Shown here in pieces: positions 2,998-18,388 of a DNA stretch of 64,000 bases. The notes below the pieces were generated by a model that saw nothing but the letters and a program-made list of their open reading frames with translations, did no database searches and was not told where the DNA came from. The translations under genes and the position numbers were made by a program. Source of the stretch: Iodidimonas sp. SYSU 1G8 (GTDB lineage: Bacteria > Pseudomonadota > Alphaproteobacteria > SMXS01); the NCBI RefSeq assembly GCF_039655775.1, contig NZ_JBBYXJ010000001.1, forward strand, positions 2,069,501-2,133,500, written 5' to 3'. How positions within the stretch are numbered: the first letter of the stretch is position 1; each line of letters begins with the position of its first letter.

Positions 2998-3681
2998 ATG
3001 AAATGGATGTTTCTGGCCCTTGTGCTGATCGGAACGGCTTCGTGGGCGGCCATCCATTTCTCGCTGGTCAAGATCCCGCCCAACTGGGCCCCGTGGGGCG
3101 CCGTGGAACTGGACGAGGAGCCGGCCTGGTTCGCCCGCATGCAGATCAACAGCCTCACATCCGACCCGGCGGCCTGCTACGGCGCTCTGGACAACTCCAG
3201 CATCGAATACCGGCGGCTGGACGACCGGCCCATCGTCGACGGCTGCGGCCTGGAAGCGGGCGCGGAAATCCTGCGGTCGCAGATCGCCTATAGCAGCGGC
3301 TTCCGCACCACCTGCGGCATCACCGCGGCGCTGTACTGGTACGAGCGCCGGCTGGACGCGCTGGCAGTGGAACATCTGGGCAGCAAGATCACCCGGATAC
3401 GGCATCTGGGCACCTATTCCTGCCGCAATATCGGCGGCGGGCAACGGCGCAGCCAGCATGCCACGGCCAACGCCATCGATCTGGCGGGCTTTACCCTGGC
3501 AGACGGCACGACGGTGTCTGTCCTGCGTGATTGGGGCGATGGCGGCGACAAGGGCCGTTTCCTGCTGGCGGCCCGGGACGAGGCCTGCCGGTTCTTCAAC
3601 ACGGTGCTGGGGCCGGAGTACAATCAGGCGCATGCCGACCATTTCCATCTGGATCTGGGCCGGGCGCGGATCTGCCGCTGA
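2998..3681 (+). CDS. extensin-like family protein (LAS-type peptidase fold)
   Basis: 227 residues. It starts with a hydrophobic segment (residues 4-22) that serves as a signal peptide or anchor. The C-terminal domain matches the bacterial extensin-like family (PF06904): paired cysteines (AACYGAL, DGCGLEAG, TTCGIT, YSCRNI), then SQHATANAIDLAGF and AHADHFHLDLG. The His/Asp/His arrangement (SQHATANAID and HADHFH) is that of zinc-dependent LAS peptidoglycan hydrolases. It probably acts in the periplasm on peptidoglycan (inference). Its last 86 bases overlap the 3' end of the convergent DxDD gene. Confidence 0.88.
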   Translation: MKWMFLALVLIGTASWAAIHFSLVKIPPNWAPWGAVELDEEPAWFARMQINSLTSDPAACYGALDNSSIEYRRLDDRPIVDGCGLEAGAEILRSQIAYSSGFRTTCGITAALYWYERRLDALAVEHLGSKITRIRHLGTYSCRNIGGGQRRSQHATANAIDLAGFTLADGTTVSVLRDWGDGGDKGRFLLAARDEACRFFNTVLGPEYNQAHADHFHLDLGRARICR

Positions 3682-4513
3682 CGAGCCGGCGCGCCTGCCC
3701 GACGGCGGAACTGGTCCAGCGCATGAGCCCGTAAGGGCTGCCGCAGATGACAGGCGCGTCGCCGCATGACGCCTGACGCAGGCGACGCCAGAGCGGCGAC
3801 CGATCCATCAAGGCGCGCATCGGCGCCAGTTCGGACACACCCGCCGCGACCGCCGCCTCGACCGCCATGACCAGCTCGCCCGCCTCCGGATAGAAGGGCG
3901 ACAGGCTGGCGGCGCGCCCGGCATCGTCCGCGGCCCAGGCGACGCCGTCGGCGATCATGGCGCAGGCCTGCGCATAGCCGGGCACGGAGGGCAGCCCGGC
4001 TACCGCCAACATCATCAACACGTTGGCATTGACCGTGCAGTCCATCATCGCCGGTTCGGCGCCGCCGCGCAGCCAGGTCTTGAACGCGCCGATGCGCGGC
4101 CAGGACGGCCCCGGCTGCACGCTCGATTGCAGCCGGTGACACACAACGGTGCGACAAGCGAGCCCTCGAAGCTGATCGAGATCCATGCGGCCGCCGCGCC
4201 ACAGGGCCACGGCCATCAGGGCGGTGTCATCGGCGTCGCAGGGCAGGTTCGGCGCCCAGGCCGGGCGGCGCCCGTTCGGCCAGAACCGAAATCCTCCGGT
4301 GAGCGGATCGCGGCACGCTTCAAGGGCGTCCAACGCGGCCTCGTGCCAAGGGCCGAGAATCGCGGGCGCGGTTGGGCCGAGGGTGCGCAGGACGAGCGCC
4401 GTCGCGAACCCGTTGCGATCGTCGAGATCGACCCCGCCGCCGGTGACCCGGCTGGAAAAGCAGCCGTCGGCGCCGGGCCGCAGGCTCAGGGGCGCAGGCC
4501 GACCTGCATCCAT
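3596..4513 (-). CDS. alpha/alpha-toroid-like protein with DADD motif (terpene cyclase-like?)
   Basis: 305 residues, mostly helical. The segment CDADDTALMAVALW near residue 92 matches the DxDD acid motif that protonates substrates in class II terpene cyclases and squalene-hopene cyclases, with a helical context of the same kind. Repeated blocks such as DRNGFATALVLRTL and AMMDCTVNANVLMMLAVAG resemble squalene/prenyltransferase-type toroid repeats. The protein is about half the length of a full class II cyclase, so it may hold one domain only, or only share the fold. It is the last gene of the eight-gene unit, overlaps the gene before it by 28 bases and overlaps the convergent extensin-like gene by 86 bases. 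Cyclase activity is not shown. Confidence 0.72.
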   Translation of the reverse strand: MDAGRPAPLSLRPGADGCFSSRVTGGGVDLDDRNGFATALVLRTLGPTAPAILGPWHEAALDALEACRDPLTGGFRFWPNGRRPAWAPNLPCDADDTALMAVALWRGGRMDLDQLRGLACRTVVCHRLQSSVQPGPSWPRIGAFKTWLRGGAEPAMMDCTVNANVLMMLAVAGLPSVPGYAQACAMIADGVAWAADDAGRAASLSPFYPEAGELVMAVEAAVAAGVSELAPMRALMDRSPLWRRLRQASCGDAPVICGSPYGLMRWTSSAVGQARRLVSGRSAPGPDPDGNGRHAPDCTPAPAPC

Positions 4514-5427
4514 GGCCGGCCATCTCCCGCCACGCCGAAACCGATCATGCCGTGGCGCCCGGGCCGGTCCGACCCGGCCGTGCCGAGGAGCGCTTCGTAG
4601 ATGGTCGTGTCCCAGCCATAGCGGACCGCCAGTTCGCGCACCTTGGATGTCACCGCGGTGTCGCCGCCGAGGAGCGGCCCGGCATGGACGAAGAAGCCGG
4701 CGGCCACGAGGCGCCCGTCATGGGTCGCGAGGCTGAGGCCGGCGGTACCCGGAAGCAGATAATCGTCGCAATTTCGCCCGGTGAGATGGGATGCCACGTC
4801 GATGACCGCCGACGCGTCCAGGCCGCATCGCACCAGCAGGCGTTCGATTTCCCATATTTCCGGCTTCTGCAGCCGGCCATAGAGCTCGACGGTCCCGGCG
4901 CCGGCATCGACGCCCGCCATGCGCCAGACCATGCGCGACGGGATGGAGCGTTGGATCGAGGGCCGCAGCAACTCGCCCGGCAGCTCGGCATCGGCCATGT
5001 CGACATAGAGCTTGTAGCGGTCCCGTTCGCCATCGTGCCGCCCACTGACCCAGGCACCAAAGCGCAAGCCGCGTCCAGCATGGGGCATCAACCATGGCGG
5101 CACGTCCGTATCGGCGCCCAGATGGTGCAGGACGCGCTGGGCCGAACCCAGCCGTTCCGGCTCAGGCGTCTCCGGGCCCGCCGCCTCGGCGGTCCAGCGG
5201 ACCGACGCGTCGCGCGACGACCAGGACATTTCCACGGGATAGCCCGTATTGGTGAGGCTGCTGGCCTTCCACGCCACTTCAGGCCAGCGCGAGCGCCGCG
5301 TTGCCGCCAGCGTCGCTCCCAGCGCCCGGCCTGCCCGCCGCACGGCGAGAGGCGCAACGGGACGGAGCCGGCCAAGAACCGCGTCGAGGGGCGCCGCTTC
5401 CGGCGCAATGCGATCTGCGAACGTCAT
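4486..5427 (-). CDS. unknown protein, possible ABBA-prenyltransferase-like fold
   Basis: 313 residues, no confident family. The block TGYPVEMSWSSRDASVRWT resembles the first strands of aromatic (ABBA/DMATS) prenyltransferases, which often read P-x-E-x-S-W then VR(Y/F)T. A later RYKLYVDM resembles their K-x-Y diphosphate-binding strands, and the C terminus ends in alternating strands (HGMIGFGV, PWMQVGL). This is pattern similarity only; a structure prediction would decide. The start at 5427 forms an ATGA overlap with the stop of the preceding 1034-residue gene, so the two are translationally coupled. The pairing with the downstream DxDD protein makes a terpenoid-related role worth testing. Confidence 0.68.
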   Translation of the reverse strand: MTFADRIAPEAAPLDAVLGRLRPVAPLAVRRAGRALGATLAATRRSRWPEVAWKASSLTNTGYPVEMSWSSRDASVRWTAEAAGPETPEPERLGSAQRVLHHLGADTDVPPWLMPHAGRGLRFGAWVSGRHDGERDRYKLYVDMADAELPGELLRPSIQRSIPSRMVWRMAGVDAGAGTVELYGRLQKPEIWEIERLLVRCGLDASAVIDVASHLTGRNCDDYLLPGTAGLSLATHDGRLVAAGFFVHAGPLLGGDTAVTSKVRELAVRYGWDTTIYEALLGTAGSDRPGRHGMIGFGVAGDGRPWMQVGLRP

Positions 5428-8400
5428 ACCTGTATGGGCACCACTTCTTCTTCTGAAGTCTCCCAAGCTAGACGCCGGAAATCGCCATTGGTTCCCACCA
5501 CGGTGAAGCGATAGCGAAATTGTCGCTGGAGCGGGTCGAGCAGGGCGAGCCGCAGGCGGATATTGTCCGCCTGATCGCCCCGGATATCGATCCGCTCGGC
5601 CCGGCTGTAGCTGTTCGCCGGATCGTTGTATTCGACGTCGATGAACATCTGGCGGACGGCGGCCGCGTCGAACAGCGGCACGAATTCGATGTTCAGCGCC
5701 TGATCGAACGGATCGTGGACGATCAGGGTCGAGGCCTCCAGCGGCGCGGCCGGCACTTCGCGGACGGTCCCGTCCTTCAGATGATGCCTGAGCGCCGCGG
5801 TGATCTGCCGCGTCTCGGGCGCCACCGGCTTGGGCGCGCGCAGGCGCCAGAGCTGGGGTGGCGAGTCCGGCAGCACCACGAACACCTTGCGGCGCGCGAA
5901 CGCGCCCGGCCCCGCCGCGGCCAAGGTAACCTCGGTCGAGTTCACCACCCCAGCGTCGATGTCGCCCGGCGCGACGGCGATTTCGAGGAAGTCGAGCACG
6001 TCGTAGGGATTGACGAACAGGGTGCGATCCTCGGTCCGGGCGGCCGGCACCTCGATGCTGAAATCCTCCGCGTCCCAGCCCGAATCCGGGCTGAAATGGA
6101 ACTGCTGCTGCTGCGCATAATCCACGTCATGTGTGGAGTTCAGGAACACCGCGAACTCCTTGGGTCCCTTGTCGTCTGGCCGGAACACGAAGTCCCCGTG
6201 CTTGTGGTCGCGCGCGTTGGCGGGATCGCCATAGTCCAGCGCCACCTGCGCCGACAACAGGCCGATCTTGTCGAAATCGATGGGCGCTTCCGCCATCACC
6301 CTGAACTCGCGGAAGAACGGATCGTCCAGATCGACCTCGGTGAAATAGCTGTCCTTGTCGTCGAGATCGCCCAGCATCAGCCCGAAGAAGCCCTGCGGCG
6401 CGTAGACGCGGCGCACCGCCTCCGACCGGTTGTAGCGGAAGGTCATCTTCTTGCGCTCTTCCTGGCGGATGAACTTGAGCTTCAGGCTGACCACGCCGGG
6501 CATGCTGCTGGGCGCGGCGGGCGGCGTCTCCTTCTTGTCTTCCTTCTTCGGCGGCACGGGATCGATCTTGGGCGGCTCGATGACGGTGGATTTTCCGCGC
6601 GCCAGCGTGCCCCGGAAGGCCGAGGTCTGGCCGCCCGCGACGCGCCCCTTGATCTTCACCACCCGGTCGTTGGGGTCGCCCGTGTTGGGATTGCCGGCGG
6701 TGCCGCGCGCGTCCACGTCGCCATGTGAGCGCGCCGGCGTGGAGAGGGATGCGCCCGCGCGGGCGACCAGCGCCACGGCCACGTCCGAGCGCCGCATGGA
6801 CAGGCGCATGTTGTGCTCGCGCTGCTGGTCGCCGGTCAGCGGCGTCTGGCCACTGCCGGGCTGGGCGGCGGTCTCATAGCTGGCATGGGCGTCCAGTTCG
6901 ACCGTGCGCGGCGCGGCAAGCGTGGACAGCCAGCGGTTGAGCCTATCCCGGCCCCGCTCGGCGCCGCTCCAGGTCGCACCGTCGCCCTGGGCGATGCCGC
7001 TGGCGCTCTGGTAGCGCTGATCGGTGGTCGAGTTCTCCACATAGGCGCGGTACTGGGCGCTGGGCGGATTGGTGCTCCAGCCCGCCATGTCCGGCTTGTC
7101 GAAGTCGAAGAACAGGTGAAACGTCTCTTCCTGGGTCGCGGCCGGCCAGTCGACCTCGATCGGCACCGAGCCTTCCGGCGGCACGTCGATGGTGAACTGT
7201 CCCTGCGGGTTCAGGGTCTGGGCCGCGCCGCCCGCCTTGACCACCGCGCCCGCGCCGGTGACCGTGATGGTCTCGCGCGTCCCGTTCGCGGCGGGCACGT
7301 GAACGACGCCCCGTCCGGCCGGCAGAGGCGTCGGCGTCATGCTGGTCGGCGTCAGCACCGCCGGCTGCTGGATGACCTGCCGTGTCGCCGCCTCGCCCGT
7401 CGCCGCCGTCGCCTTGGTGTCGCCCGTGCCGCCGGCCTTGGTGTCACCCGTGGCCTTGGTGTCTCCACCGACCTTGGTCTCGCCGCTGGCCTTGGTATCA
7501 CCGCTGGCCTTGGTATCACCGCCAGCCTTGGTGTCTCCTCCGGTCTTGGTATCACCAGTCTTGGTGTCGCCGCCCGTTTTGGTGTCGCCGCCGGCTTTCG
7601 TATCGCCGCCGGCTTTGGTGTCCGGCGCCGGTGTCTCGCCGCGCAGCGCCTCGCGGGTGAACTTGGCGACCTCGGCGAGCGGGTCGGCCTGCGCCGTGGG
7701 CGAGGCAAGCTGACCGGGCGTGAAGGTCGGCTCGAACCATTTGGACAGCAGCTCGTCCTTGAAGAAGGCCAGCGCCCAGTCCTCCTGTTCCTTCTCGTCG
7801 GCATCGCCGGTGAAGTTGAGGATTTTGATCTTGATCGCCCCGGTCTGCTTCAGGCTTTCGAACGCGGCGTCGATGCCGGCGCGGATCCACTGGTACTGGG
7901 CTTCCAGGCTGGCGCTGAAATGGTTGAAGATCATCTCCAGATCGGCGGTGATCTCCACCTCGAGCGCCGGGCGCATGCCGCTATAGACGAAGCTGTAGAG
8001 CACGCCGATGGGCGCGAGCCCCTTTTCGAACGCCTGCTCGAGGATGGTCGCGCCTTCCTGCGAGAGGGTCAGGCTGAACGCGGCGCGGTTTTCCGCGTCC
8101 ATGGACGGCGTCGTCGCGCCCAGGATGGTCTGCACCGCGTTGAACGCGCCCGGCGGCGGTTCGACGGCGACGGCGCCGCCCGAGCCCTGGATGTTGAGGG
8201 CGATGCACTGCACCGTGCCGGATTCGAAGATCACCGGCGACAGGCGCGGCTGGGTCACGCCGGGCTCGCTCAGCACCGTGCTGCGGATCCTGCTGGCCAG
8301 GCTGTCCGGCAGTTTCAGCGTCGTCTCGAACATGGCGAAGCCGCCGCCCTTGACGCCCGCGCCGGCCACCGCCGGCTTGTACTTGATGAAACTGAACGCG

Positions 8401-8528
8401 GCCCGGTTGCTGTCGGCGCGCCGGGCCAGATTGACCGGCCCGGGCAGGTACCAGAACTGGTCCGGATCGGCATGGTCGCGGAAAACGGCGATGCCGTCGA
8501 CGGAAAGCGGCTTGTCGAGACTGAGCAT
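5424..8528 (-). CDS. giant beta-rich protein with OmpA-like segment and GDTK repeat; paralogous family member
   Basis: 1034 residues, no named family. The N-terminal block (about 1-270) has FRDHADPDQFWYLPGP and FSFIKYKP, shared with the next two upstream genes. Residues about 303-373 are a Gly-Asp-Thr-Lys repeat. Residues about 520-590 resemble an OmpA C-terminal domain: a VELDAHASYE strand and then LSMRRSDVAVALVARAGA, which parallels NxxLSxxRAxxVxxxL. About 690-740 carries the APQG and DLDDPFF block shared with its paralogues, and the C terminus repeats a roughly 100-residue beta module (FIDVEYNDPANSY). There is no signal peptide. The start at 8528 has GAGGGG upstream. The gap to the preceding gene is 21 bases, and the stop overlaps the next start (ATGA). 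A structural or envelope-linked role is inferred. Confidence 0.85.
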   Translation of the reverse strand: MLSLDKPLSVDGIAVFRDHADPDQFWYLPGPVNLARRADSNRAAFSFIKYKPAVAGAGVKGGGFAMFETTLKLPDSLASRIRSTVLSEPGVTQPRLSPVIFESGTVQCIALNIQGSGGAVAVEPPPGAFNAVQTILGATTPSMDAENRAAFSLTLSQEGATILEQAFEKGLAPIGVLYSFVYSGMRPALEVEITADLEMIFNHFSASLEAQYQWIRAGIDAAFESLKQTGAIKIKILNFTGDADEKEQEDWALAFFKDELLSKWFEPTFTPGQLASPTAQADPLAEVAKFTREALRGETPAPDTKAGGDTKAGGDTKTGGDTKTGDTKTGGDTKAGGDTKASGDTKASGETKVGGDTKATGDTKAGGTGDTKATAATGEAATRQVIQQPAVLTPTSMTPTPLPAGRGVVHVPAANGTRETITVTGAGAVVKAGGAAQTLNPQGQFTIDVPPEGSVPIEVDWPAATQEETFHLFFDFDKPDMAGWSTNPPSAQYRAYVENSTTDQRYQSASGIAQGDGATWSGAERGRDRLNRWLSTLAAPRTVELDAHASYETAAQPGSGQTPLTGDQQREHNMRLSMRRSDVAVALVARAGASLSTPARSHGDVDARGTAGNPNTGDPNDRVVKIKGRVAGGQTSAFRGTLARGKSTVIEPPKIDPVPPKKEDKKETPPAAPSSMPGVVSLKLKFIRQEERKKMTFRYNRSEAVRRVYAPQGFFGLMLGDLDDKDSYFTEVDLDDPFFREFRVMAEAPIDFDKIGLLSAQVALDYGDPANARDHKHGDFVFRPDDKGPKEFAVFLNSTHDVDYAQQQQFHFSPDSGWDAEDFSIEVPAARTEDRTLFVNPYDVLDFLEIAVAPGDIDAGVVNSTEVTLAAAGPGAFARRKVFVVLPDSPPQLWRLRAPKPVAPETRQITAALRHHLKDGTVREVPAAPLEASTLIVHDPFDQALNIEFVPLFDAAAVRQMFIDVEYNDPANSYSRAERIDIRGDQADNIRLRLALLDPLQRQFRYRFTVVGTNGDFRRLAWETSEEEVVPIQV
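7411..7623 (-). repeat. in-frame GDTK hexapeptide repeat (about 12 copies)
   Basis: A tandem, slightly degenerate 15-18 base repeat inside the 1034-residue gene encodes units such as GDTKAG, GDTKTG, GDTKAS and GETKVG. On the plus strand it reads as GCCTTGGTGTCGCC-like units. It forms a low-complexity, charged linker between the N-terminal block and the OmpA-like segment. Because the units are in phase, copy number can vary without breaking the frame. Confidence 0.95.
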
Positions 8529-8549
8529 GAGTGTTCCCCTCGCGTCCGG

Positions 8550-10835
8550 TCAGGGCGCCTTGATCTGCAGGATCGCGGCTTCCGACGCTTGCCAGTCGGT
8601 GCCTTGCTCCAGCCCGTTGTCATAGAGATACGTGGTGCGGGTTTCGTAGCGGTCGCGCGCCTCGTCCACGTAGTCGAACTCGAAATAGCCGCGCGCGCTG
8701 GCGTCCTCGAACACGAAGCTGTCGTTGAACGACAGTCCCGCCGCGAAATCCTCGTATCGCACCTCGGCGGTCGCCCGCTTCAGGTGCTTGGCGGCGAAGT
8801 CGGCCGGCGGCCGGACCTCGACGACGCGGCGTCCCTTCATGTCCGGGCGGACGACGATGCGGCGCTCCAGGGTCATGGATTCGGGCACCTCGACCATGCG
8901 GCCATCGACGAACAGGAAGGTGACCTTGAAGAACACCTGCTTCAGTTCCGGGTCCTGCATGTCGACCGTGAACTTCTGCGGCGTGCTGCCCTTGGCGAAA
9001 TTGAACGAGGCTTCCTCGAAGATGTCGTTCGCCTCGTCTTCGTAGCGCAGGTCGACGAACACCTGGTCGACCTGGTTCCAGTCCACATTGGCGACCACAT
9101 CCAGCACGCGCTTGCGCGGATAGGGATCGCGGACCGAAATCTGCTCCTCGTCCGTGGTCTTCCAGCCGGCGTCCAGATCGCGGTTGTCGGCGGCGCGGTA
9201 GACGAGCCGGTACGAGAACTCCCGTTTGCGCGGATCGAGGATGAAGATGCGCCACTGCGCGTCCTGCGCCTTTTCCGTCAGCTGGAACACCTCGCTCTGG
9301 TCCAGCCCGCTGCCCTCGTCCTGATACCGGACGTGAGCCTCGACCATGGGATAGGCCGCCCATGGGAAATTCACCGCGACGATGGGCACGGTGGAAATGG
9401 CGTAGAGTTCGCGCGGGTCGATCTCCAGGTTCTCGACCTCGGTGGTGAACCTTTCCGAGACGACCTTGCGCGGCCGTTCGGTGGTATCGACGCCGGTGAA
9501 ATTGACCTCGTACTGGACCTCGACCGGACGCCGCATGGCGCCGTTGTCGAGCACGCTCATCCACTCGAACGTCCCGGTCTGGGACGCCTTGCCGAGCAGC
9601 ACGTTCTTCGGGTTGTCGCCATAGCGTGCCTGGACGTTGATCGAGCCGATGGCGTCGGTGTCGAAATCGGCGCGGCTCACCACATTGAGCCGGCGCTTCT
9701 GGAACCACGGATCGTCCAGGTCCACATCGGTGATGAAGCGCTCGCGCGGCAGCGGCGTGTCGCGCAGCAGGCGGAACATGCCGGCCAGATGGCCCTGCGG
9801 ATGAATCGAGCGCTGGATCGCCACCCGTTCCGAGAAATTGACGTTGAGCATCTTCTTGTCGACGCGCTTGTAGTTGTTGTTGGCGTAGGAGAAGAAGGTC
9901 GAGGATGTCGCCGCGCCCGCCGGCCCGGCGCCGATGGCGCCGATGACGCCCGAGGCGACGCGCAGCGCCTCCTTCCACTCCTCTTCCTTGCCGGGCTCGT
10001 AGGGCGGCAGGCTGGGCGTGAAGAACGCCTCGGTGATCATGGAGCGGACCTGGGCCAGCGCGGCGTCGCGCCGGTCGAGGATGCCCTGGTTCTCCTCGTC
10101 CTCGGTGATGAAGGTGTCGGCCTCCAGCACGATGGCGCGCTCTTCCTCCAGTTCGTCGACCGTGTTCGCGATCTCGAAGGACGAGAACAGGAAACCGCCG
10201 GCGAACTTCTCGTCCATGTGCTTTTGCACCCGGTCCCAGTCGATGTTGAGACGGACGGAATAGGCCGGGCGCAGGCCGAGATAGTTGAGCGAATACACCA
10301 CGGCGATCGGCATGATCTCGCCGGCGAGGGACTTTTCGATCACCGTCACCCCGGCCTGATCGAGACGGATGGAGAACGCCGCCTGGTTGTTGCCGTAGAG
10401 CGACGGGCTGGCGTGATGGTCCATCTTCAGGACGAATTTCGGCCCGCCATCCGCCGCCGCGTCAGCGACAGCAGGATCATCGCCGGACTGACGGCCCAGC
10501 ATCAGCAGCTTGACCGTGCCGCTGACCGTGGTGACCGGCGCGAGGCGCGGCATCTCGCGAAGCCGCTCCTCGTTCTGGATCTGCCGCTTGATGGTCTCCA
10601 ACTTGTCGTCGCTGGCGCCGATATTGACGTCGAAGTTCAGGAAGCCGCCGGCTCCCGCCTCGCCGCGAAAGCGGATCAGCGAGAACTGCGGCACCTCGGC
10701 GTTGCCCGCCGCCTGGTCCCGGATGGTGGTCAGGTGCGGCGCCAGCGGCAGGTAGTAGTACTGCAACGGGTCCGCGTGATCCGGGAAGACGGTAATCCCC
10801 TCGATTTCCCGCTGCTTGCTGTCTAACAGGAGCAT
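8550..10835 (-). CDS. large beta-rich protein, paralogue in the eight-gene unit
   Basis: 761 residues, unrecognised family. The N-terminal block reads FPDHADPLQYYYLPLAP and FSLIRFRG, aligning by eye with the 1034- and 728-residue neighbours. Next come SLYGNNQAAFSIRLDQ and AVVYSLNYLGLRPAYSV, then a shared middle block (IHPQGHLAG, VDLDDPWFQ), then C-terminal copies of a beta module of about 100 residues (FVDLRYEDEANDIF, AEVRYEDFAAGLSF). No signal peptide or membrane segment is visible. A GGGAGG site precedes the start at 10835. It is 21 bases upstream of the 1034-residue gene and 25 bases downstream of the 728-residue gene. The tandem arrangement suggests duplication and then specialisation (inference). 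Confidence 0.85.
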   Translation of the reverse strand: MLLLDSKQREIEGITVFPDHADPLQYYYLPLAPHLTTIRDQAAGNAEVPQFSLIRFRGEAGAGGFLNFDVNIGASDDKLETIKRQIQNEERLREMPRLAPVTTVSGTVKLLMLGRQSGDDPAVADAAADGGPKFVLKMDHHASPSLYGNNQAAFSIRLDQAGVTVIEKSLAGEIMPIAVVYSLNYLGLRPAYSVRLNIDWDRVQKHMDEKFAGGFLFSSFEIANTVDELEEERAIVLEADTFITEDEENQGILDRRDAALAQVRSMITEAFFTPSLPPYEPGKEEEWKEALRVASGVIGAIGAGPAGAATSSTFFSYANNNYKRVDKKMLNVNFSERVAIQRSIHPQGHLAGMFRLLRDTPLPRERFITDVDLDDPWFQKRRLNVVSRADFDTDAIGSINVQARYGDNPKNVLLGKASQTGTFEWMSVLDNGAMRRPVEVQYEVNFTGVDTTERPRKVVSERFTTEVENLEIDPRELYAISTVPIVAVNFPWAAYPMVEAHVRYQDEGSGLDQSEVFQLTEKAQDAQWRIFILDPRKREFSYRLVYRAADNRDLDAGWKTTDEEQISVRDPYPRKRVLDVVANVDWNQVDQVFVDLRYEDEANDIFEEASFNFAKGSTPQKFTVDMQDPELKQVFFKVTFLFVDGRMVEVPESMTLERRIVVRPDMKGRRVVEVRPPADFAAKHLKRATAEVRYEDFAAGLSFNDSFVFEDASARGYFEFDYVDEARDRYETRTTYLYDNGLEQGTDWQASEAAILQIKAP

Positions 10836-10860
10836 GGTCGGCCTCCCTTCCGCCGGCCCG

Positions 10861-13047
10861 TCAGGCCGGCACCTCGAGGATCACGGTTTCGCCCTGTCCC
10901 GGCTGCTCGGCGACTTCCTTGCGCGAGCCGTCCGCCATGAAGAAGCGCGCGCTCCACTTGTAGTCGCGGGCCGCCTTGTTCTTCAGGTCCACCGTCCAGT
11001 TCTTGGCCTGCTCGCCCGACTTGAAGATGAAATCCTTGCGCTCGTCGATCTGGTTGGGATCGTCGGTGTAGCGCAGGCTGACATTGACCAGCTTGACCGC
11101 CGCGAAGTCGATCAGGTCCGGCACCACCATGACCTCGAGCCGGTCCGCGACCACGTCACCGAGCTGGATGGTCGAACGCGCCGCCACGGTTTCGGGAATG
11201 TCCCGTGTCGTGCCGTCGGCATACTGCACCGTACCGGAATATTTCAGCTCGCCCGCGTTCTCGTCGATCACCGGGAAGACCCAGTCGAAGAACGGCGTCG
11301 CCTTGGACAGCGCCATGGACTTGGTCTGGGTGTAGTTGTTGTTCCCCGCGTCCTTGTAGACGAGGTCGACCATGATCGACTGGATTTTGGTGTTCAGGTC
11401 GCCAACCGCCCGCAGGCCGACCGTCTTCATGGCCGAGAACGGATCGTTGATGTAGATCTGCGCCGCGTCCTGTTCCTTGCCCTTCACTTCGAACTCGCGG
11501 CCATCGATCATGAAGTACTTCACGTCGTATTTGATGGGCTTGGTGCGCGGCTTGAAGATCACTTCGCGAATCTGGAATTCGTTGTTCTGCTCGGTCATGG
11601 TGAACTGCCGTTCGACCGGGGTGATTCCGGCATCCTCGTAGCGCACCTTGATCTGCGCCTGTTTCACCTGGGTGAAGTTGATGTCGCCGGGGGCGATATC
11701 GACCACCAGAATACCCAGATCGTCCACATTGATGGTCAGCTGGGTATCGTCGGTCTCGATCTCGGGCGACGTGAACACCCGGTTGTCGCCCTTGTAGTTC
11801 ACCTGATAGACGAACTTGTACTTGCGGTTCTTGTCCTCGACGAAGGTACGGAACTTGGCGACATCGTCGGGCTTGGAGAAATTGTATTCCTCCACCTTGG
11901 GATTGGCGCCGAAAGGATAGGAAAGCTTGGCCTCGACGTTGAAGATGGGAAGATTGGTGAAATCCGCGTTGACGCGCACGGCCACTTCAAGCGTCTGGAA
12001 GAAGGGATCGTTCAGGTCCACCTCGAGAGCGTAGTCCGCCCAGTTGAAAGTCTTGCCGTCCGGCCCTTTCATGGTGGTGATGTTCGGCAGCAGACCCTGC
12101 GGCACGATGTTCCACTCGATGACCTGGCTTTCCTTGAAGTTGATGTTCACGTCGGAAATCTGGGTCTTGGACACGGTGCGCTTGATGTCCTCGATGTCCT
12201 GATCCTCGCGCAGGCTCTTGGTGTCCGGGTCGGTCGCCTCGATCTCCTTGAGCATGTTGCGCTCGACCGCGTCTTCCAGCTGCCGGGTGACGGCGGCGCG
12301 GATATCGTTCTCCATCTTGCGCTGGTCTTCCGCCGACATGGCCGGATTGCCGACGAAGTTGAACTCGGTGCCCATGACCTCGTTCTTGCGCATGGTCTCG
12401 CGGATGCTCTCCTCGTAGCTGTCCTCGCTCCAGAAATTGTCCTCGGTATTTATGGTCTGGACGAAGGAATAGAACGAGCTGGCATGCCACCAGCCGCGTG
12501 CCGTCACCGGCGGCAGCTTGGCCCAGATCTGCAGATCGTAGACCACCGAGACGAAACCGCCCTGGCCCTGCAACGCCTGCTCGAAGACGGTGGCGCCTTC
12601 CTTGGTCAGCTCGACCCAGAAGGTGGCGACGTTGTTGCCATAGAGCGACGGCTTGCCCGCGCCCCGCACCTTCTCGACCAGCGTGCCGCCCTCCCCGATG
12701 TTCAGGTTGGCGGTGCCGCCCGTATAGGTCAGCGGCCCGACGACGACCTGGGGCGGCTGCTGGCCGCGCTGCTGGTACTTCGCATTCACCTGGTTCTGAA
12801 GTTCGCCCTTCACCGCCGCCAGCTTGTCCGGCGCGACGACAAATTCAGTGTCGAAGGCGCATACGCCACCGAACAGGTCGTTCCCTTCCTTGCGCAGCTC
12901 GCGATACTTGATGAACTTGAAGACCGGCTTGCCATCTTCCAGGCGGAACCGCGGCGTCTGCGGCACGAGGTAGAAGGTGAAATCACTCTTGTCGTCCCCA
13001 TAGACGGTCACGTCCTGAATCTGCTGAATCTTGTCGATCTGAAGCAT
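10861..13047 (-). CDS. large beta-rich protein, paralogue in the eight-gene unit
   Basis: 728 residues, unrecognised family. Shared blocks: DVTVYGDDKSDFTFYLVPQT and FKFIKYRE at the N terminus, SLYGNNVATFWVELTKEGAT around residue 130, NIVPQGLLPN and EVDLNDPFFQ around 310-350, and C-terminal beta modules (KVRYEDAGITP, MVDLVYKDAGNNNY, NVSLRYTDDPNQID). It is less GC-skewed in residue use than its paralogues (more Lys, Asn and Ile), so it may be closest to the ancestral or core subunit (inference). A consensus AGGAGG precedes the start at 13047. No signal peptide, Cys-rich region or catalytic motif is evident. Confidence 0.86.
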   Translation of the reverse strand: MLQIDKIQQIQDVTVYGDDKSDFTFYLVPQTPRFRLEDGKPVFKFIKYRELRKEGNDLFGGVCAFDTEFVVAPDKLAAVKGELQNQVNAKYQQRGQQPPQVVVGPLTYTGGTANLNIGEGGTLVEKVRGAGKPSLYGNNVATFWVELTKEGATVFEQALQGQGGFVSVVYDLQIWAKLPPVTARGWWHASSFYSFVQTINTEDNFWSEDSYEESIRETMRKNEVMGTEFNFVGNPAMSAEDQRKMENDIRAAVTRQLEDAVERNMLKEIEATDPDTKSLREDQDIEDIKRTVSKTQISDVNINFKESQVIEWNIVPQGLLPNITTMKGPDGKTFNWADYALEVDLNDPFFQTLEVAVRVNADFTNLPIFNVEAKLSYPFGANPKVEEYNFSKPDDVAKFRTFVEDKNRKYKFVYQVNYKGDNRVFTSPEIETDDTQLTINVDDLGILVVDIAPGDINFTQVKQAQIKVRYEDAGITPVERQFTMTEQNNEFQIREVIFKPRTKPIKYDVKYFMIDGREFEVKGKEQDAAQIYINDPFSAMKTVGLRAVGDLNTKIQSIMVDLVYKDAGNNNYTQTKSMALSKATPFFDWVFPVIDENAGELKYSGTVQYADGTTRDIPETVAARSTIQLGDVVADRLEVMVVPDLIDFAAVKLVNVSLRYTDDPNQIDERKDFIFKSGEQAKNWTVDLKNKAARDYKWSARFFMADGSRKEVAEQPGQGETVILEVPA

Positions 13048-13092
13048 GGTGCCCTCCTGCTTTGACTTCCGATGTATGCCGTGCCGTCGCCC

Positions 13093-13746
13093 TCAGCGGG
13101 CGGCGGCCCAATCCGCCGCGTCCAGCCGGACGCTGAGTTTCTCGATCTCTTGCGTGGTTTCGCGGGTGGCCGTGGTCTCGGCCTGCCCTGATTCCGTGCT
13201 GCAGAACCCGTCCGGTCCACTGTCCTCGCGCGCCTCGCTGGTCGCCGCGTGCTCGGCCGTGACGCGGGTGACAGGCACCCGGCGCGTGAGGTCGTAACGC
13301 AGGGCGAGCACGAGTCGCTTGCCGTCGAGCGCCTCCTGCACGGTCTTCACCTGCGCCGCGTCGAGCATGATGTTGAAAGCCGCGTGATAGGGCGGCACGC
13401 CCGACGACTTGGTCTGTTGCAGCACCTTATCGCCATCCGCGCCGTCGCTCATGACCAGCGCCGCGCCCTCCACCGTCTCCGGCACGGGCAACAGCGTCAG
13501 CGCCTCCGGACGGCAGCCGAGCCTGCCGGCCAGTTCCTCTTTCAGCGCCGCGACCGAGGCGGCGCTCAATCCCCATGAGCCTGTGATCTGAAGGAACGAC
13601 ACGGTCCCTGCCGCGAGCAGGTTGAACTGGCGGCGTCCTTCGCCATCGGAGGCGATCCCCGGTGCCTTGGGCGCAAAATAGAAAATATCCGGCTCCGTCT
13701 CCCCGGCGGGATAGACCAGGCCATTGCTCAGTTCCAAGACGGTCAT
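13093..13746 (-). CDS. short paralogue holding the N-terminal block only
   Basis: 217 residues. GLVYPAGETEPDIFYFAPKA aligns by eye with the YLP block of the large paralogues, and YHAAFNIMLDAAQVKTV followed by LVLALRYDLTRRV aligns with their AAFSIRLDQAGVTV and VVYSL segments. It therefore looks like a stand-alone copy of the N-terminal domain without the C-terminal beta modules. The last 45 residues are polar and probably disordered or coiled (TRETTQEIEKLSVRL). The start at 13746 forms an ATGA overlap with the stop of the gene before it, which fixes the start and couples the two. Confidence 0.82.
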   Translation of the reverse strand: MTVLELSNGLVYPAGETEPDIFYFAPKAPGIASDGEGRRQFNLLAAGTVSFLQITGSWGLSAASVAALKEELAGRLGCRPEALTLLPVPETVEGAALVMSDGADGDKVLQQTKSSGVPPYHAAFNIMLDAAQVKTVQEALDGKRLVLALRYDLTRRVPVTRVTAEHAATSEAREDSGPDGFCSTESGQAETTATRETTQEIEKLSVRLDAADWAAAR

Positions 13747-15572
13747 CGGACGCCCTCCACTTCGCCGGACACGCTGGTCCTGGCGCTGCTTGTCAGAGTG
13801 AGCGGGCCGATGGCGGGATCGACCCGTCCCGACCACGGCGCGGGCGGCTCGCCCGGATTGCGGAACCAGCGCCAGCAAAAGCCGTCGCGCAGCGGATTGG
13901 TCACGAGCCAGCGCCATTCTCGTTTCGGCATAGCGGGCGTCAGCCTGACAAGGCCGATGGCGGCGGTCTCGTCCAGCCGGTCCTCCGGCGCGCACTCGAT
14001 GGCCGCGAGCCCGGCGCTATCGTCGAAGGCGCAGGTGATTTCGGCCATGGCAGGCCCGGCTGTCGGGAAGCTGGAGAGATCCAGCCAGCAATCATCGAGC
14101 GGCCGCGTATCGAGCCGCAAGGTCCGCCCATGGTCATGGCTCGTGGCCATGACCGACAGGGTGCCCTCGGCGACATCGAGCGGCACGGCGATGGCCAGGG
14201 ACGGTGTCGCCGCGTCCAGCCCTGCCTCGGCCGACCAGGCCGCATCGCCCCGTTTGCCCTTGCAGCTTATATGCAGAGTGGCGAGCGCAAGAAGCGCGGG
14301 GGTTGACTCGATACGCAGAAAGCGAACCGGAAAGCTGGCCGGCGCGATGGTGAGGTGCAGCCCTTCGTGGCGCAGGACAGGACCGGTCAGCCGCTGCGCA
14401 CCGCCAGCGCCGGTGACGAAGGCGACGGTCTGATAATCGAACGCCACCGGCTCGGCCGGCGATAATCGCAGCGGCAGTGTCCGGGTGGTGTCTCCGTCCC
14501 GGAACAGCGCCGATGCGCTCACTGTCTGCGGCCGATCCGGCAGGAAGGGCCGCACGCGGACCTCGGTGCTCAGCATCAGCACGCCGACGCGGCGCGCCGG
14601 AAGATTGGGATAGATGCTGAGCACATGCAATCCGGTGGCGAAAGGCACCACCGGCGCGTCGCGCGTCAGCCGGAAATCGTTGGCGGCCGCCTGCCGGGCG
14701 GTCTCAAGCGGGTTGGACGCCAGCACGAAGCCGCGCGGCGTCAACGTCTCGTCCGACAGGTCCCAGGTGACGTCGCCATCCAGCATGGCGGCGGTGTCGA
14801 TCACAAAGACCGGACCCGAGGCCGGGTCGGCGGCGGGCGCCAGGCAGCCATAATGGGCGATCACCCGTTCGGCGCAGGCCTGCGCGGCGGCCAACTTGTC
14901 GGCATTCGAAGCGAGCCCGATGAAGCCGAAGGCGGGCGTGTCGCCAAGTCCCATGAGCACCGCCGTGATGGCCTCGACCGTCGATCCGCCGTTCACGGCG
15001 GCGGCAGAGATCATCGGCGCCAGCGCCGCAGGATTGAATCGAACCCGTGCATTGGCGCGGCTGGAGAGACCGAGCGCATCCACCTCGGCCAGCGCCGTCA
15101 CCGTCACCATGCCGTTGGTCAGCGCGTCGTTCAGCAGCGCCGTCGCCGCCTCGCCCAGCTGGGCGGCGAAGGTCAGCGCGCCCGCGCCCGCCCAGACCAG
15201 CGGCTTCGGCGTCAGTAACTCCTCAGGGACGTCCAGCGCGGCCGCGGCCTGAAACCTCAGAAACCCGCCACGGGGGATCAGCGGCTCGACCCGGGCGTCG
15301 GGGTGTTCGAGAAACACGCTTTCCTGCCGTTCCGCGATCGCGAAATGGCTCGCGAAGCGAATGGTCAGCAGGCCGAACACATGCGGCCCGTCGGCGCCGC
15401 CGGTCAGTCGGATCAGCTCCAGCGCCAGCGCCGGCGCGCCGCCGGGCTCGACCGCGACCCGCAGATCGAGCGGCGGCGCGTAAATCCGCCGGGGCTCCTC
15501 ATGGGCGAAGTACATCTCGCCGCCGCCGGCCTTGACGGGCTGGGACCAGTCTGGGGATCCCTTCAACGACAT
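13743..15572 (-). CDS. large beta-rich protein, unknown function
   Basis: 609 residues starting MSLKGSPDW. The sequence has many short strands and Ala/Pro-rich loops with no family I can name. I do not see the YLP or DLDDPFF blocks of the paralogues, so it may be a distinct subunit. Residue pairs such as RIYAPPLDLRVAV and RVGVLMLSTEVRVRPFLP suggest beta-sandwich domains. The start at 15572 lies seven bases after the stop of the upstream gene, and the stop overlaps the next start (ATGA). No signal peptide or membrane helix is seen. Function unknown; membership in the unit rests on spacing. Confidence 0.8.
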   Translation of the reverse strand: MSLKGSPDWSQPVKAGGGEMYFAHEEPRRIYAPPLDLRVAVEPGGAPALALELIRLTGGADGPHVFGLLTIRFASHFAIAERQESVFLEHPDARVEPLIPRGGFLRFQAAAALDVPEELLTPKPLVWAGAGALTFAAQLGEAATALLNDALTNGMVTVTALAEVDALGLSSRANARVRFNPAALAPMISAAAVNGGSTVEAITAVLMGLGDTPAFGFIGLASNADKLAAAQACAERVIAHYGCLAPAADPASGPVFVIDTAAMLDGDVTWDLSDETLTPRGFVLASNPLETARQAAANDFRLTRDAPVVPFATGLHVLSIYPNLPARRVGVLMLSTEVRVRPFLPDRPQTVSASALFRDGDTTRTLPLRLSPAEPVAFDYQTVAFVTGAGGAQRLTGPVLRHEGLHLTIAPASFPVRFLRIESTPALLALATLHISCKGKRGDAAWSAEAGLDAATPSLAIAVPLDVAEGTLSVMATSHDHGRTLRLDTRPLDDCWLDLSSFPTAGPAMAEITCAFDDSAGLAAIECAPEDRLDETAAIGLVRLTPAMPKREWRWLVTNPLRDGFCWRWFRNPGEPPAPWSGRVDPAIGPLTLTSSARTSVSGEVEGVR

Positions 15573-15579
15573 GACGCCC

Positions 15580-17871
15580 TCACACGATCGGCAGCACGAG
15601 GAGGCTGAAATCCGCCTCGCGCCAGCTGGGGTCGATGACCTGCGACCCGTTCCGACGGATGATTTGTTGACGGAACCCATACTTGCCCTGGGTGTCGCGC
15701 CCGAGCAGGAGGTCCATCAGCGGCAGCTGCACCTGCGCCACGCCCGAGGGCTGCTCGCGACTCAGCTTCAGATTGCCGCCGCCCTTGAACTCCACGTTGA
15801 TGAGGATGATGGAGCCCGGATCGGCGGCATCGCCCAGAAGCTCGGGCATGGTCATCACCTCGATCTGCCGTTCGTACTGGGCCGGTACGGACATGTCGCT
15901 GATCAGCGGCAGTATCTTTTCCGGATCCGGCAGGATCTTCACCCAGGAGGTATCGAACAGGGCATCGAGCACGCCGTCGCCCGGCAGTGCCGCCTTTGGC
16001 CTGACGGTAAAGGTCACTTCGGCGCCGGGCGCGAGCTCGAGGGGCGGCTCGAAGGCGACGCCCTCGATCTCGGCGTCCACTTCCCGGTCACCCTTGCGGA
16101 CGCGCACCGGCAGGCCCGTGAGCCGCACGGGACTTTCAATGCCGTTCCGCATGCTGACAGCGATGGTGCCATCCGTGTCCGATGGCTGCTCGCCAAAGGC
16201 CAGGATTTCGCCCTGAGTGTCGGCGAAGCGGATTTCCACCGGGATCGGCTCGGGCGTGGCCAGGCCGGTTTCCACCAGCACCTGGCCGGAGAACAGGCTG
16301 GTCGCATCCTGGCTGTAGGCCGCCGCGTAGAGCTGCCGGAAGCCTTCGAGGGGCAGGGTCAGACTGTGGACGAAGCCGTTGGCCAGGTCGATGGCCACAT
16401 CCTTCTGATCGGACAGCGCCGCGCCGGCCACGCCGGGCACCCAGAGCTTCAGCGACGCCTTCGCCTGCAGCGGCCGCAATTCGGGCTCGGGCTGCGCCGA
16501 GGTCGCCGCCGGGATCTCCCGCTTCAGCGCGGCCCGCGCTGCGTTCAGCCGCGCCGCATCGATCCAGGGTTCGACCACGTAGTCGATGGTGACCGCGGCA
16601 TTGTCGATGGCCCCGTCGGGCGCCGCGATGCGCACCACCATCTGCGGCAGGAACGGCGCCACGTCCCGGCGCGAGAGCTTGAAGCGGTCGGGCAGGTAGT
16701 AAAACACCCACGGCTCGCTCTTGTCCTGGAGGTAGGCGTGGAACCGTGCATCGGGCGCGCCTTGCGGATGGGGCAGCACGATGCGGCGGAACTCCGCGAC
16801 ACGCGCGCCGCCGCCTACGGCGGCGCCGTCGTAGAGATAGGGGTGCAGGCGCGGGTCGAGAACGAAGGGTTCCGGGTCGGCCACGTCGTCTAGCGCCCTC
16901 TGGATCGTCTGATAGCGCGCCTCCGGCTGGGTCTGGACCGGCTCCACCGTCTGGATGAAACCCGGATTGATCATCGCCTCCATGGCCAGCGGTCTGGCCA
17001 TCATGTGCATCATCTGCGGCTTCGCGACGGGCGGACGGTCAATCGGCGGCGGCGTGACCGCCAGCGTATCGATCCGGGGACGCGCGACCCTCATGGTCAC
17101 CGGCTCGTTCACCATCAGCAACTCGGGCCTGATCTTATGGATCAGCACCGGCGGCTGGTCCGACTTGGCGTCTTCCGGAAGATTGACCGCCACGCTGATC
17201 GCACGCCGCACGAGCAGCGCGGGACGCGCGGCCGGCGTCTGGAGCGCGAACATCAGATTGTCGCGCGCGGCCAGGTCGAGAGTGACCGAGACGGTGATAC
17301 CCTTGGGATCGTTGGCGACCTCGGTGAAATCGACGCGCTTCTCGATCGCGTTCGATGGGCCGGCGCCATAGCGGAAGAACACCGCGACCTCGTGCGGCAG
17401 CTCGGCCGCGCCCTGAGCGGACGCACCCAATTCGGGGGCCGGGAAACGCTCGAGTCCCACGCTCAGCCGCCAGCCGCCCTGCGGCACGGCGGTGACGCCA
17501 ATCTCGTATCGCCCGCCATGCTCGCGCAGCCGGTAGCGCGGCAAATAGGATTTCTGCGCCGGATCAGCCGGCGCCTCGAACAGGACCGCATCGGTGGGCT
17601 CCGCCACCGGCGAGACCGGCACCGTAAGCTGGTCCCGCGCCGATCCCCGGCCGCGCAGCTTGTCGAGGATGTGCGGGCGAACCCGGATCATCTCGGCGGC
17701 GAGGCGGGGATTGGCCCGCGCCATGGGCTGGACCATCGCGGCGGCCCGCGCCTGGGCGCCGACGGTGGTGACCCGGGCGGGCGCTTCTTCTATCTTAGGT
17801 TGTATTGTCTGTGGTTGGAGACGAACGGCGGACAGATCACCGACCCGCATGAAAATAGGCGCCCTAGCCAT
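15580..17871 (-). CDS. large beta-rich protein, first gene of the eight-gene unit
   Basis: 763 residues, no named family. The N-terminal third is Ala/Arg/Pro-rich, then LPRYRLREHGGRYEIGV and SVGLERFPAPELG strands follow. Around residue 395 it has SEPWVFYYLPDRFKLSRRD, which resembles the YLP block that starts the other paralogues, here in the interior. The C-terminal part (SIILINVEFKGGGNLKLS, GVAQVQLPLMDLLLGRD) again looks beta-rich. The start at 17871 has GGAGGG nine bases upstream; an ATG seven codons in is an alternative. As the promoter-proximal gene it is probably the most strongly expressed of the unit (inference). No signal peptide is visible. Confidence 0.82.
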   Translation of the reverse strand: MARAPIFMRVGDLSAVRLQPQTIQPKIEEAPARVTTVGAQARAAAMVQPMARANPRLAAEMIRVRPHILDKLRGRGSARDQLTVPVSPVAEPTDAVLFEAPADPAQKSYLPRYRLREHGGRYEIGVTAVPQGGWRLSVGLERFPAPELGASAQGAAELPHEVAVFFRYGAGPSNAIEKRVDFTEVANDPKGITVSVTLDLAARDNLMFALQTPAARPALLVRRAISVAVNLPEDAKSDQPPVLIHKIRPELLMVNEPVTMRVARPRIDTLAVTPPPIDRPPVAKPQMMHMMARPLAMEAMINPGFIQTVEPVQTQPEARYQTIQRALDDVADPEPFVLDPRLHPYLYDGAAVGGGARVAEFRRIVLPHPQGAPDARFHAYLQDKSEPWVFYYLPDRFKLSRRDVAPFLPQMVVRIAAPDGAIDNAAVTIDYVVEPWIDAARLNAARAALKREIPAATSAQPEPELRPLQAKASLKLWVPGVAGAALSDQKDVAIDLANGFVHSLTLPLEGFRQLYAAAYSQDATSLFSGQVLVETGLATPEPIPVEIRFADTQGEILAFGEQPSDTDGTIAVSMRNGIESPVRLTGLPVRVRKGDREVDAEIEGVAFEPPLELAPGAEVTFTVRPKAALPGDGVLDALFDTSWVKILPDPEKILPLISDMSVPAQYERQIEVMTMPELLGDAADPGSIILINVEFKGGGNLKLSREQPSGVAQVQLPLMDLLLGRDTQGKYGFRQQIIRRNGSQVIDPSWREADFSLLVLPIV

Positions 17872-18325: not shown

Positions 18326-18352
18326 AAAAAGGCCCCGCCGATGAGCGGGGCC
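18326..18352 (-). terminator. Rho-independent terminator after the Rieske oxygenase gene
   Basis: Read on the minus strand, the stem GGCCCCGC/GCGGGGCC (8 bp, 6-base loop) is followed directly by TTTTT. It lies 36 bases beyond the stop of the Rieske gene. It should separate that transcript from the eight-gene unit downstream, which therefore needs its own promoter. Confidence 0.9.
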
Positions 18353-18388
18353 TTGCCGAGGAAGCCTGATCCTCAATCCCTCAGGGGG

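What the first reader, a model, noticed from the sequence alone, without database searches (positions are those of the whole stretch)
3596..17871. Eight-gene unit of large, unclassified beta-rich proteins
Eight minus-strand genes over 14.3 kb have gaps of 45 bases or less, several with ATGA overlaps. A terminator at 18326 isolates the unit from the gene upstream. Six encode large or mid-size beta-rich proteins with no family I can name and no signal peptides; two encode smaller enzyme-like proteins. The set looks like one multi-subunit assembly or delivery structure, not a metabolic operon.
Basis: partly seen in the sequence, partly recalled or inferred. Interest (0 to 1): 0.88.

Follow-up and report, generated by a model that had tools for sequence, protein, structure and literature searches.

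The report
Terpenoid-enzyme operon of beta-rich paralogues
Eight bacterial genes travel together across distant bacteria: six make large or mid-size proteins, most of them related and none in a curated family, and two look like enzymes that attach a prenyl chain to an aromatic group and fold it into rings, which suggests a protein assembly carrying a terpenoid tag.

Summary
The eight-gene unit is real and conserved. In 6 of 7 loci found with g4, all eight occur in the same order and strand (Lysobacter, Hydrogenophaga, Nitrospira, the window's genus); the seventh lacks g5. The larger proteins share ancestry: g3-g6 clearly, g2 probably, g1 weakly. The surprise is the two 'enzyme-like' genes. g8 models as a stand-alone class II terpene cyclase domain (VIA Z 20.9 to drimenol synthase) with an invariant DxDDT motif; g7 weakly resembles DMATS/ABBA aromatic prenyltransferases. 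g7-g8 with one g4-like protein form a minimal triad in Azospirillum, Calothrix and an unnamed alphaproteobacterium. Relatives carry changing neighbours: Mak-type pore-forming toxins, caspase, trypsins, subtilase, amidase, PLD. Best reading (0.35): g1-g6 form one assembly; g7 then g8 put a cyclised prenyl group on an aromatic residue, probably of a member protein. This chemistry has a published parallel (NctPC on peptides); its coupling to such a protein set was not found in ten open-access searches. Acceptor, assembly, export and activity are not shown, and the window set has no recognisable effector.

The parts
15580..17871 (-). g1, 763 aa; weak similarity to g6 in two stretches (profile positions 697-768, and 362-467 against the shared N-domain)
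   Evidence: hhalign to g6 52% and 40%
13743..15572 (-). g2, 609 aa; distant paralogue of g4-g6
   Evidence: hhalign to g6 92%, E 5e-7
13093..13746 (-). g3, 217 aa; shared N-domain alone; ATGA overlap with g2
   Evidence: hhalign 96-97% to g4, g5, g6
10861..13047 (-). g4, 728 aa; the type also found next to g7-g8 in minimal triads
8550..10835 (-). g5, 761 aa; N-part about 1-360, Ig/FnIII-like domains about 379-757
   Evidence: AlphaFold pLDDT 79, pTM 0.39; the 50 listed VIA rows lie in 375-761
5424..8528 (-). g6, 1034 aa; N-domain, low-complexity linker, extra domain, Ig-like part
7404..7625 (-). about residues 302-375 of g6: DTKAGG repeat linker; SGGSSGG or GGTGGT repeats in three Lysobacter copies
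6642..7130 (-). g6 residues 467-629: OmpA-C-like by eye only
   Evidence: no Pfam family at E<=1
4486..5427 (-). g7, 313 aa; DMATS/ABBA-type aromatic prenyltransferase-like; E66, R77, K139, Y141, Y183 invariant in 11 of 11
   Evidence: Trp_DMAT at E<=1 in 6 of 8 members, best E 0.0072, under the cut-off
3596..4513 (-). g8, 305 aa; stand-alone class II terpene cyclase-like domain; D93, D95, D96, T97 invariant in 10 of 10
18326..18356 (-). terminator-like hairpin and T-run of the gene upstream

Best explanation
The unit encodes one protein assembly plus its own terpenoid-tagging enzymes. Shown: eight genes co-inherited in fixed order. Shown for g3-g6, likely for g2, weak for g1: the larger proteins are paralogues sharing an N-terminal domain, modelled in g5 to be followed by about four Ig/FnIII-like domains. 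Inferred: g1-g6 assemble into one hetero-oligomer. Inferred from fold and motif: g7 moves a prenyl group from a prenyl diphosphate to an aromatic side chain, and g8 then protonates and cyclises the attached chain (class II chemistry). g7-first is favoured because a drimenyl-type diphosphate is not an allylic donor (chemical reasoning, not tested). Inferred, least certain: the acceptor is a Trp or Tyr of a protein of the set, most likely the g4 type, since a g4-like protein is the steady neighbour of g7-g8; the cyclised terpene would anchor the assembly in a membrane. In relatives the run also holds changing lytic or protease-like genes, so the assembly may present or unleash effectors; the window copy has none that I recognise. 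My odds per step: one unit 0.97; g8 a class II cyclase 0.85; g7 an aromatic prenyltransferase 0.75; both acting in series 0.65; acceptor a protein of the set 0.4.
For: Order: 6 of 7 loci with all eight. Paralogy: hhalign g4/g5/g6 100%, g3 96-97%, g2-g6 92%, g1-g6 52%. g8: model pLDDT 82, pTM 0.81; Foldseek rank 1 AsDMS drimenol synthase, E 3.5e-7; VIA Z 20.9, 252 aligned, rmsd 3.3, against 14.6 for the next group; DxDDT in 10 of 10. AsDMS D331 and D333 are catalytic, and its binding mode resembles the monodomain cyclase merosterolic acid synthase (PMC12365925, passages). g7: Trp_DMAT at E<=1 in 6 of 8; 11 of 11 keep E66, R77, K139, Y141. Coupling: g7-g8 directly after a g4-like gene in 3 of 3 minimal loci (Azospirillum, Calothrix, G371); a 698-aa Paracoccus ORF looks like a g8-g7 fusion, by eye and SQHop_cyclase_N E 0.076. 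Precedent: NctPC, a prenyltransferase-cyclase fusion that puts C20 on Trp and then cyclises it (PMC13290415, section 8).
Against: g7 misses every curated cut-off, its fold was not modelled, and PDB profile searches gave only E 0.77 and 1.1 to a Trp dimethylallyltransferase, below unrelated chains. g8 matches no Pfam family and its PDB profile search found no cyclase (one unrelated hit, E 0.027); some class II cyclases score no better than glycosidase toroids against it (Z 11.1-12.6). hhalign finds no support for the Paracoccus fusion. Lysobacter G594 holds g1, g2 and g4-g7 but no g8 in the 39 kb read. Pararhizobium and G1058 sets show neither g7 nor g8 at significance, G114 only a g7-like gene. 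Across 19 g4-like proteins (the L007 hybrid left out) no Trp is invariant; Tyr26, 48, 377, 564 are, which may be structural. No acceptor, complex, export route or activity was shown.
Confidence: 0.35

Rival explanations
1. Small-molecule pathway: g7-g8 make a meroterpenoid from a free aromatic compound, and g1-g6 bind, store or carry it.
For: DMATS-type enzymes mostly act on small aromatics (recalled); MstE-type cyclases act on prenylated dihydroxybenzoates (titles). Tyrosinase and P450 genes lie near two relatives.
Against: No aromatic-supply, polyketide or peptide-synthetase family was matched in the unit; six larger proteins are an odd carrier; minimal triads keep a g4-like protein.
Confidence: 0.2
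2. Effector-presenting or conflict device: g1-g6 form a carrier or scaffold that holds or releases lytic and protease effectors; g7-g8 are secondary.
For: Changing neighbours in or beside the runs: MakB and MakA-type toxins, caspase, EAD1-trypsin, STAND-like NTPase, PLD, trypsin, NAL1 trypsin and Amidase_3, subtilase, a weak nuclease match.
Against: Window and Lysobacter sets show no recognised effector; the effectors differ between lineages, some lie at the edge of the run, and EAD1/STAND genes were seen in one Paracoccus plasmid only.
Confidence: 0.2
3. g7-g8 modify a short ribosomal peptide, as NctPC does, and the peptide gene was missed.
For: Split-enzyme parallel to NctPC.
Against: In the window no gap above 45 bases inside the unit leaves room for a precursor gene. 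The 517 bases upstream of g1, and the wider g3-g4 gaps of the Lysobacter loci, were not searched for short ORFs.
Confidence: 0.1
4. Cell-surface structure: Ig/FnIII-like adhesin or layer proteins with a lipid-like anchor.
For: Foldseek and VIA lists for g5 are rich in adhesin, pilin, FnIII and alpha-2-macroglobulin chains; repeat linker in g6.
Against: No signal peptide-like start by hydropathy; the matches are to common beta-sandwich domains, best Z 7.1, Foldseek TM to the query 0.17 or less in the first 50.
Confidence: 0.1

Closest known systems
NctPC (prenyltransferase-cyclase enzyme of polycyclic isoprenoid ribosomal peptides)
   Same: Alpha-beta-beta-alpha barrel prenyltransferase plus an MstE-like cyclase acting in series on Trp (PMC13290415 section 8)
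   Different: Here two genes; no small precursor seen; tied to large beta-rich paralogues. The review's other example, ChrPC, has a different (trans-IDS-like) transferase. The primary paper (Hubrich 2024) was not held, so sequence kinship was not compared
AsDMS drimenol synthase, TC-beta domain
   Same: Best fold match of g8, over residues 1-284 of 305 (Z 20.2-20.9); DxD acid
   Different: g8 lacks the HAD phosphatase domain; 14-15% identity
MstE, merosterolic acid synthase
   Same: Single-domain class II cyclase that takes prenylated dihydroxybenzoates
   Different: Z 13.7-14.1, 13-14% identity
Bacterial and fungal DMATS (Trp_DMAT, TIGR03429)
   Same: Weak profile match over the N-terminal motif; E/R/KxY residues kept
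   Different: Under the cut-offs; acceptor unknown
EAD1/STAND conflict systems (Kaur 2020, PMC7159879)
   Same: Paracoccus relative has EAD1-trypsin and a STAND-like NTPase upstream
   Different: Absent from the window; the paper's main text holds no 'prenyl', 'terpene' or 'tyrosinase'
Mak tripartite alpha-pore-forming toxin operon
   Same: Azospirillum relative begins with MakB and MakA homologues
   Different: That operon's accessory proteins MakC and MakD were reported similar to each other with no close structural relatives (PMC11484084 abstract and passages); kinship to g4, g7, g8 was not tested

Membership tests
Class II terpene cyclase (g8) | DxDD-type acid motif | tested here: met
   D93, D95, D96, T97 in 10 of 10
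Class II terpene cyclase (g8) | alpha-alpha toroid fold | tested here: met
   Z 20.9 to 9mhs; best glycosidase toroid 11.8
Class II terpene cyclase (g8) | Pfam cut-off for a cyclase family | tested here: not met
   0 families for 8 of 8 members at E<=1
Class II terpene cyclase (g8) | protonation-initiated cyclisation | not testable with these tools
   needs enzyme assay
DMATS/ABBA aromatic prenyltransferase (g7) | curated profile score | tested here: not met
   16.1 of 25 bits in Pfam, 14.6 of 163.85 in NCBIfam
DMATS/ABBA aromatic prenyltransferase (g7) | substrate-binding E, R, KxY residues (identity of these recalled from FgaPT2) | tested here: inconclusive
   invariant in 11 of 11; register seen only in weak alignments
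DMATS/ABBA aromatic prenyltransferase (g7) | PT-barrel fold | not tested
NctPC-type peptide modification | small ribosomal precursor peptide | not tested
   no room inside the window's unit (gaps 45 bases or less); region upstream of g1 not searched
Contractile or phage-tail-like injection system | phage-structural (sheath, tube, baseplate) proteins | tested here: inconclusive
   none named in Pfam, PHROGs or NCBIfam scans of the eight; g5 has no relative in 50,697 phage records
EAD/STAND conflict system | EAD or STAND NTPase in the unit | tested here: not met
   none in the Pfam or PADLOC scans of the eight; seen at L088 only

The most novel reading that the evidence does not exclude
A heteromeric toxin- or protease-presenting assembly whose subunits are lipidated by a cyclised terpene on an aromatic residue: a protein-scale, ring-forming prenylation that anchors an effector platform, spread sporadically across at least Pseudomonadota, Nitrospirota and (as a minimal triad) Cyanobacteriota.
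Probability: 0.18. Interest if true: 0.92.

Novelty: categorically new. Interest (0 to 1): 0.72.

Why it matters
If right, bacteria tag large protein assemblies with ring-folded terpenes, a lipidation that the review read here describes for ribosomal peptides. It would give a testable membrane-anchoring route for proteins without signal peptides, and would explain why a prenyltransferase-cyclase pair sits beside pore-forming toxins, caspases and trypsins. Even if the acceptor proves different, a rare gene set kept in order across phyla, with six larger proteins outside curated families, is a defined target. The rating 'categorically new' is for the whole set; the g7-g8 chemistry taken alone is of a known kind.

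Tried and rejected
Phage-tail or injection-system origin: only two weak PHROGs hits; with g5, no relative in viral contigs (82 pattern stretches, 0 relatives) or phage records. Viral fold search of g5 gave Ig-repeat and tail-fibre-like proteins, TM to the query 0.06-0.17 in the 50 rows shown, read as generic beta repeats. Defence system: one PADLOC hit, E 0.029. Rfam and tRNA: none in the window. OmpA domain in g6: looks so by eye, not supported by Pfam. MakC/MakD as g7/g8: abstract and passages suggest no link. PDB profile search with 20 g4-g6 rows: 0 hits at E<=10; with seven g5 rows one unrelated hit, E 1.2. The N-part of g5 was barely tested by fold (note), so a known fold there is not excluded. 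A 'Kuenenia' locus (L007) is not a planctomycete: same contig as G003, same genus as the window. Weak g8 hits: G357 has no g4- or g7-like ORF in 14 kb; G042 and G1287 none in about 3 kb. G189: no other cluster gene in 15 kb. Of the three plasmid records two were opened; the third, a second Paracoccus plasmid of the same length, was not. Lysobacter genomes G546, G572 and G613 were seen only as short loci.

Papers: PMC12365925 passages; PMC13290415 section 8 and passages; PMC7159879 passages; PMC11484084 outline, abstract, passages; PMC7253389 and PMC3227686 passages. Other papers named by the search calls were seen in listings only. Hubrich 2024 (PMC11484575) and Moosmann 2020 were not held and are known only from the review. 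'Not in print' rests on searches of an open-access library alone.
Full report
1. The observation. Eight minus-strand genes fill 3596-17871 with junctions from a 28-base overlap to a 45-base gap. A hairpin and T-run at about 18356-18326 closes the upstream Rieske-type gene. No member reaches a curated cut-off in Pfam or NCBIfam; PHROGs and PADLOC gave only weak hits.

2. Conservation. A scan of 84,980 species genomes with g4 gave 31 pattern stretches and 7 loci. In 6 of 7 all eight genes lie in the same order and strand; two of these, Hydrogenophaga L008 and Nitrospira L011, hold a second g6-like gene with a caspase-type gene between the copies (Pfam was run on the L008 one only). In L011 g1 is split in two ORFs and g2-g3 are fused. 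The seventh, L007, has g4's front half joined in frame to g6's back half and no g5; this may be assembly collapse. L006 and L007 belong to the window's genus, so the spread beyond the genus rests on the other five. L011 is a MAG contig of 31 kb, but a second genome drawn from its phylum holds the set on a 518-kb contig (G750).

3. Rarity. Counts include the centre genome of each draw. Profile searches found the large proteins in 3 of 60 relatives, all in the window's genus; 3 of 398 in the phylum, one of them weak; 6 of 198 in the Lysobacter family; 2 of 198 in the Nitrospira phylum; 2 of 250 in the Hydrogenophaga family; 3 of 72,556 plasmid records with g5; none, with g5, in viral contigs or phages. 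This is patchy, as in horizontal spread.

4. The large proteins. g4, g5 and g6 are plain paralogues; g3 is their N-domain alone (96-97%); g2 aligns to g6 over 550 columns (92%); g1 aligns to g6 only weakly (52% and 40%) (hhalign, pairwise and not calibrated for a database). The g5 model (20 rows, pLDDT 79, pTM 0.39) shows a mixed N-part of about 360 residues and strands consistent with four Ig/FnIII-like domains. The 50 VIA rows listed all lie in residues 375-761 and are generic, best Z 7.1 (Foldseek list). The N-part is untested by itself.

5. g8. The model is confident (pLDDT 82, pTM 0.81). Its five best VIA rows are crystal structures titled drimenol synthase or AsDMS, over residues 1-284 of g8, Z 20.2-20.9. 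Most other class II cyclases and squalene-hopene cyclases score 12.9-14.6, oxidosqualene and a plant copalyl cyclase 11.1-12.6, and glycosidase toroids up to 11.8. DxDDT is invariant in 10 of 10, including a cyanobacterium. In AsDMS, D331 and D333 mutants lose all activity (PMC12365925 passages). Pfam sees nothing, and a PDB profile search found no cyclase.

6. g7. Six of 8 members match Trp_DMAT at E<=1, best E 0.0072, below the cut-off. Eleven of 11 members keep E66, R77, K139, Y141 and Y183. That these correspond to the DMATS indole- and diphosphate-binding residues is recalled, with weak register from the alignments. The fold was not modelled.

7. Minimal triads. Searching plasmids with g8 and g7 led to g4-like, g7, g8 in Calothrix NIES-4101 plasmid3 and Azospirillum lipoferum AZO_p5; a genome search added G371. 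In 3 of 3 the g4-like gene directly precedes g7-g8. Next to them lie MakB (E 2.7e-122), MakA (5.4e-129) and a MakA-like gene below cut-off (1e-21) in Azospirillum; a weak MnuA nuclease match (2e-5) and a 1494-aa protein in Calothrix; a 1197-aa protein with a sub-cut-off CV39L lectin match (6e-10) in G371.

8. Divergent larger sets. Paracoccus plasmid: EAD1-trypsin, a second EAD1 protein, a STAND-like NTPase (AAA_16 above cut-off, nSTAND below), PLD, tyrosinase, trypsin. G114: NAL1 trypsin (2e-57) and Amidase_3 (7e-12) plus a g7-like gene (hhalign 89%). G1058: subtilase (5e-45) fused to a region that Pararhizobium and G114 carry as a separate gene. That this shared region is papain-like is my reading by eye; no Pfam or NCBIfam family at or near cut-off matched it.

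9. Synthesis. The steady theme is a g4-type protein with a prenyltransferase-like and a cyclase-like gene; the changing theme is lytic and protease genes. The parallel to NctPC, which puts C20 on Trp and cyclises it (PMC13290415 section 8), makes protein prenylation with ring closure the most economical reading. Steps shown: co-inheritance, paralogy of g3-g6, the predicted fold and the motif of g8. Inferred: assembly, g7 activity, order of the two steps, acceptor, membrane anchoring, effector role.

10. Against. g8 is missing beside one Lysobacter set (G594: g1, g2, g4-g7 seen); G114 has g7-like only, Pararhizobium and G1058 neither; no Trp is invariant among 19 g4-like proteins, though four Tyr are; the window set lacks any recognised effector. 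A g8-like protein without the set also exists (G357, weak).

11. Verdict. The finding stands and is more interesting for its two small genes than for the six larger ones. Interest 0.72.

Noticed in passing
L007 (CALQFM020000035.1): Record titled Candidatus Kuenenia stuttgartiensis is the same contig as G003:C35, a genome of the window's own genus: mislabelled or contaminated MAG.
   Followed up: partly
L007:10001-12274: g4 front half fused in frame to g6 back half, g5 missing; paralogue collapse in assembly or a real deletion.
   Followed up: partly
L087:4984-9255: 1423-aa Pararhizobium protein with a P450 match (1.3e-9) and a Dyp-type peroxidase match (5.4e-4) upstream of the relative of the unit.
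   Followed up: partly
L088:12541-17428: EAD1-trypsin, EAD1 protein and STAND-like NTPase directly upstream of the Paracoccus relative.
   Followed up: partly
window 7404-7625 (g6 linker): Low-complexity linker built from different repeats in different lineages: DTKAGG, SGGSSGG, GGTGGT.
   Followed up: no
L099:12001-12552: Bradyrhizobium pNK6d keeps only an N-terminal fragment of a g4-like gene among transposases, a likely remnant.
   Followed up: no
L008:16791-17696 and L083:16855-17763: Caspase-type peptidase gene between two g6-like copies in Hydrogenophaga (Pfam 1.9e-23) and, by likeness, in Nitrospira.
   Followed up: partly
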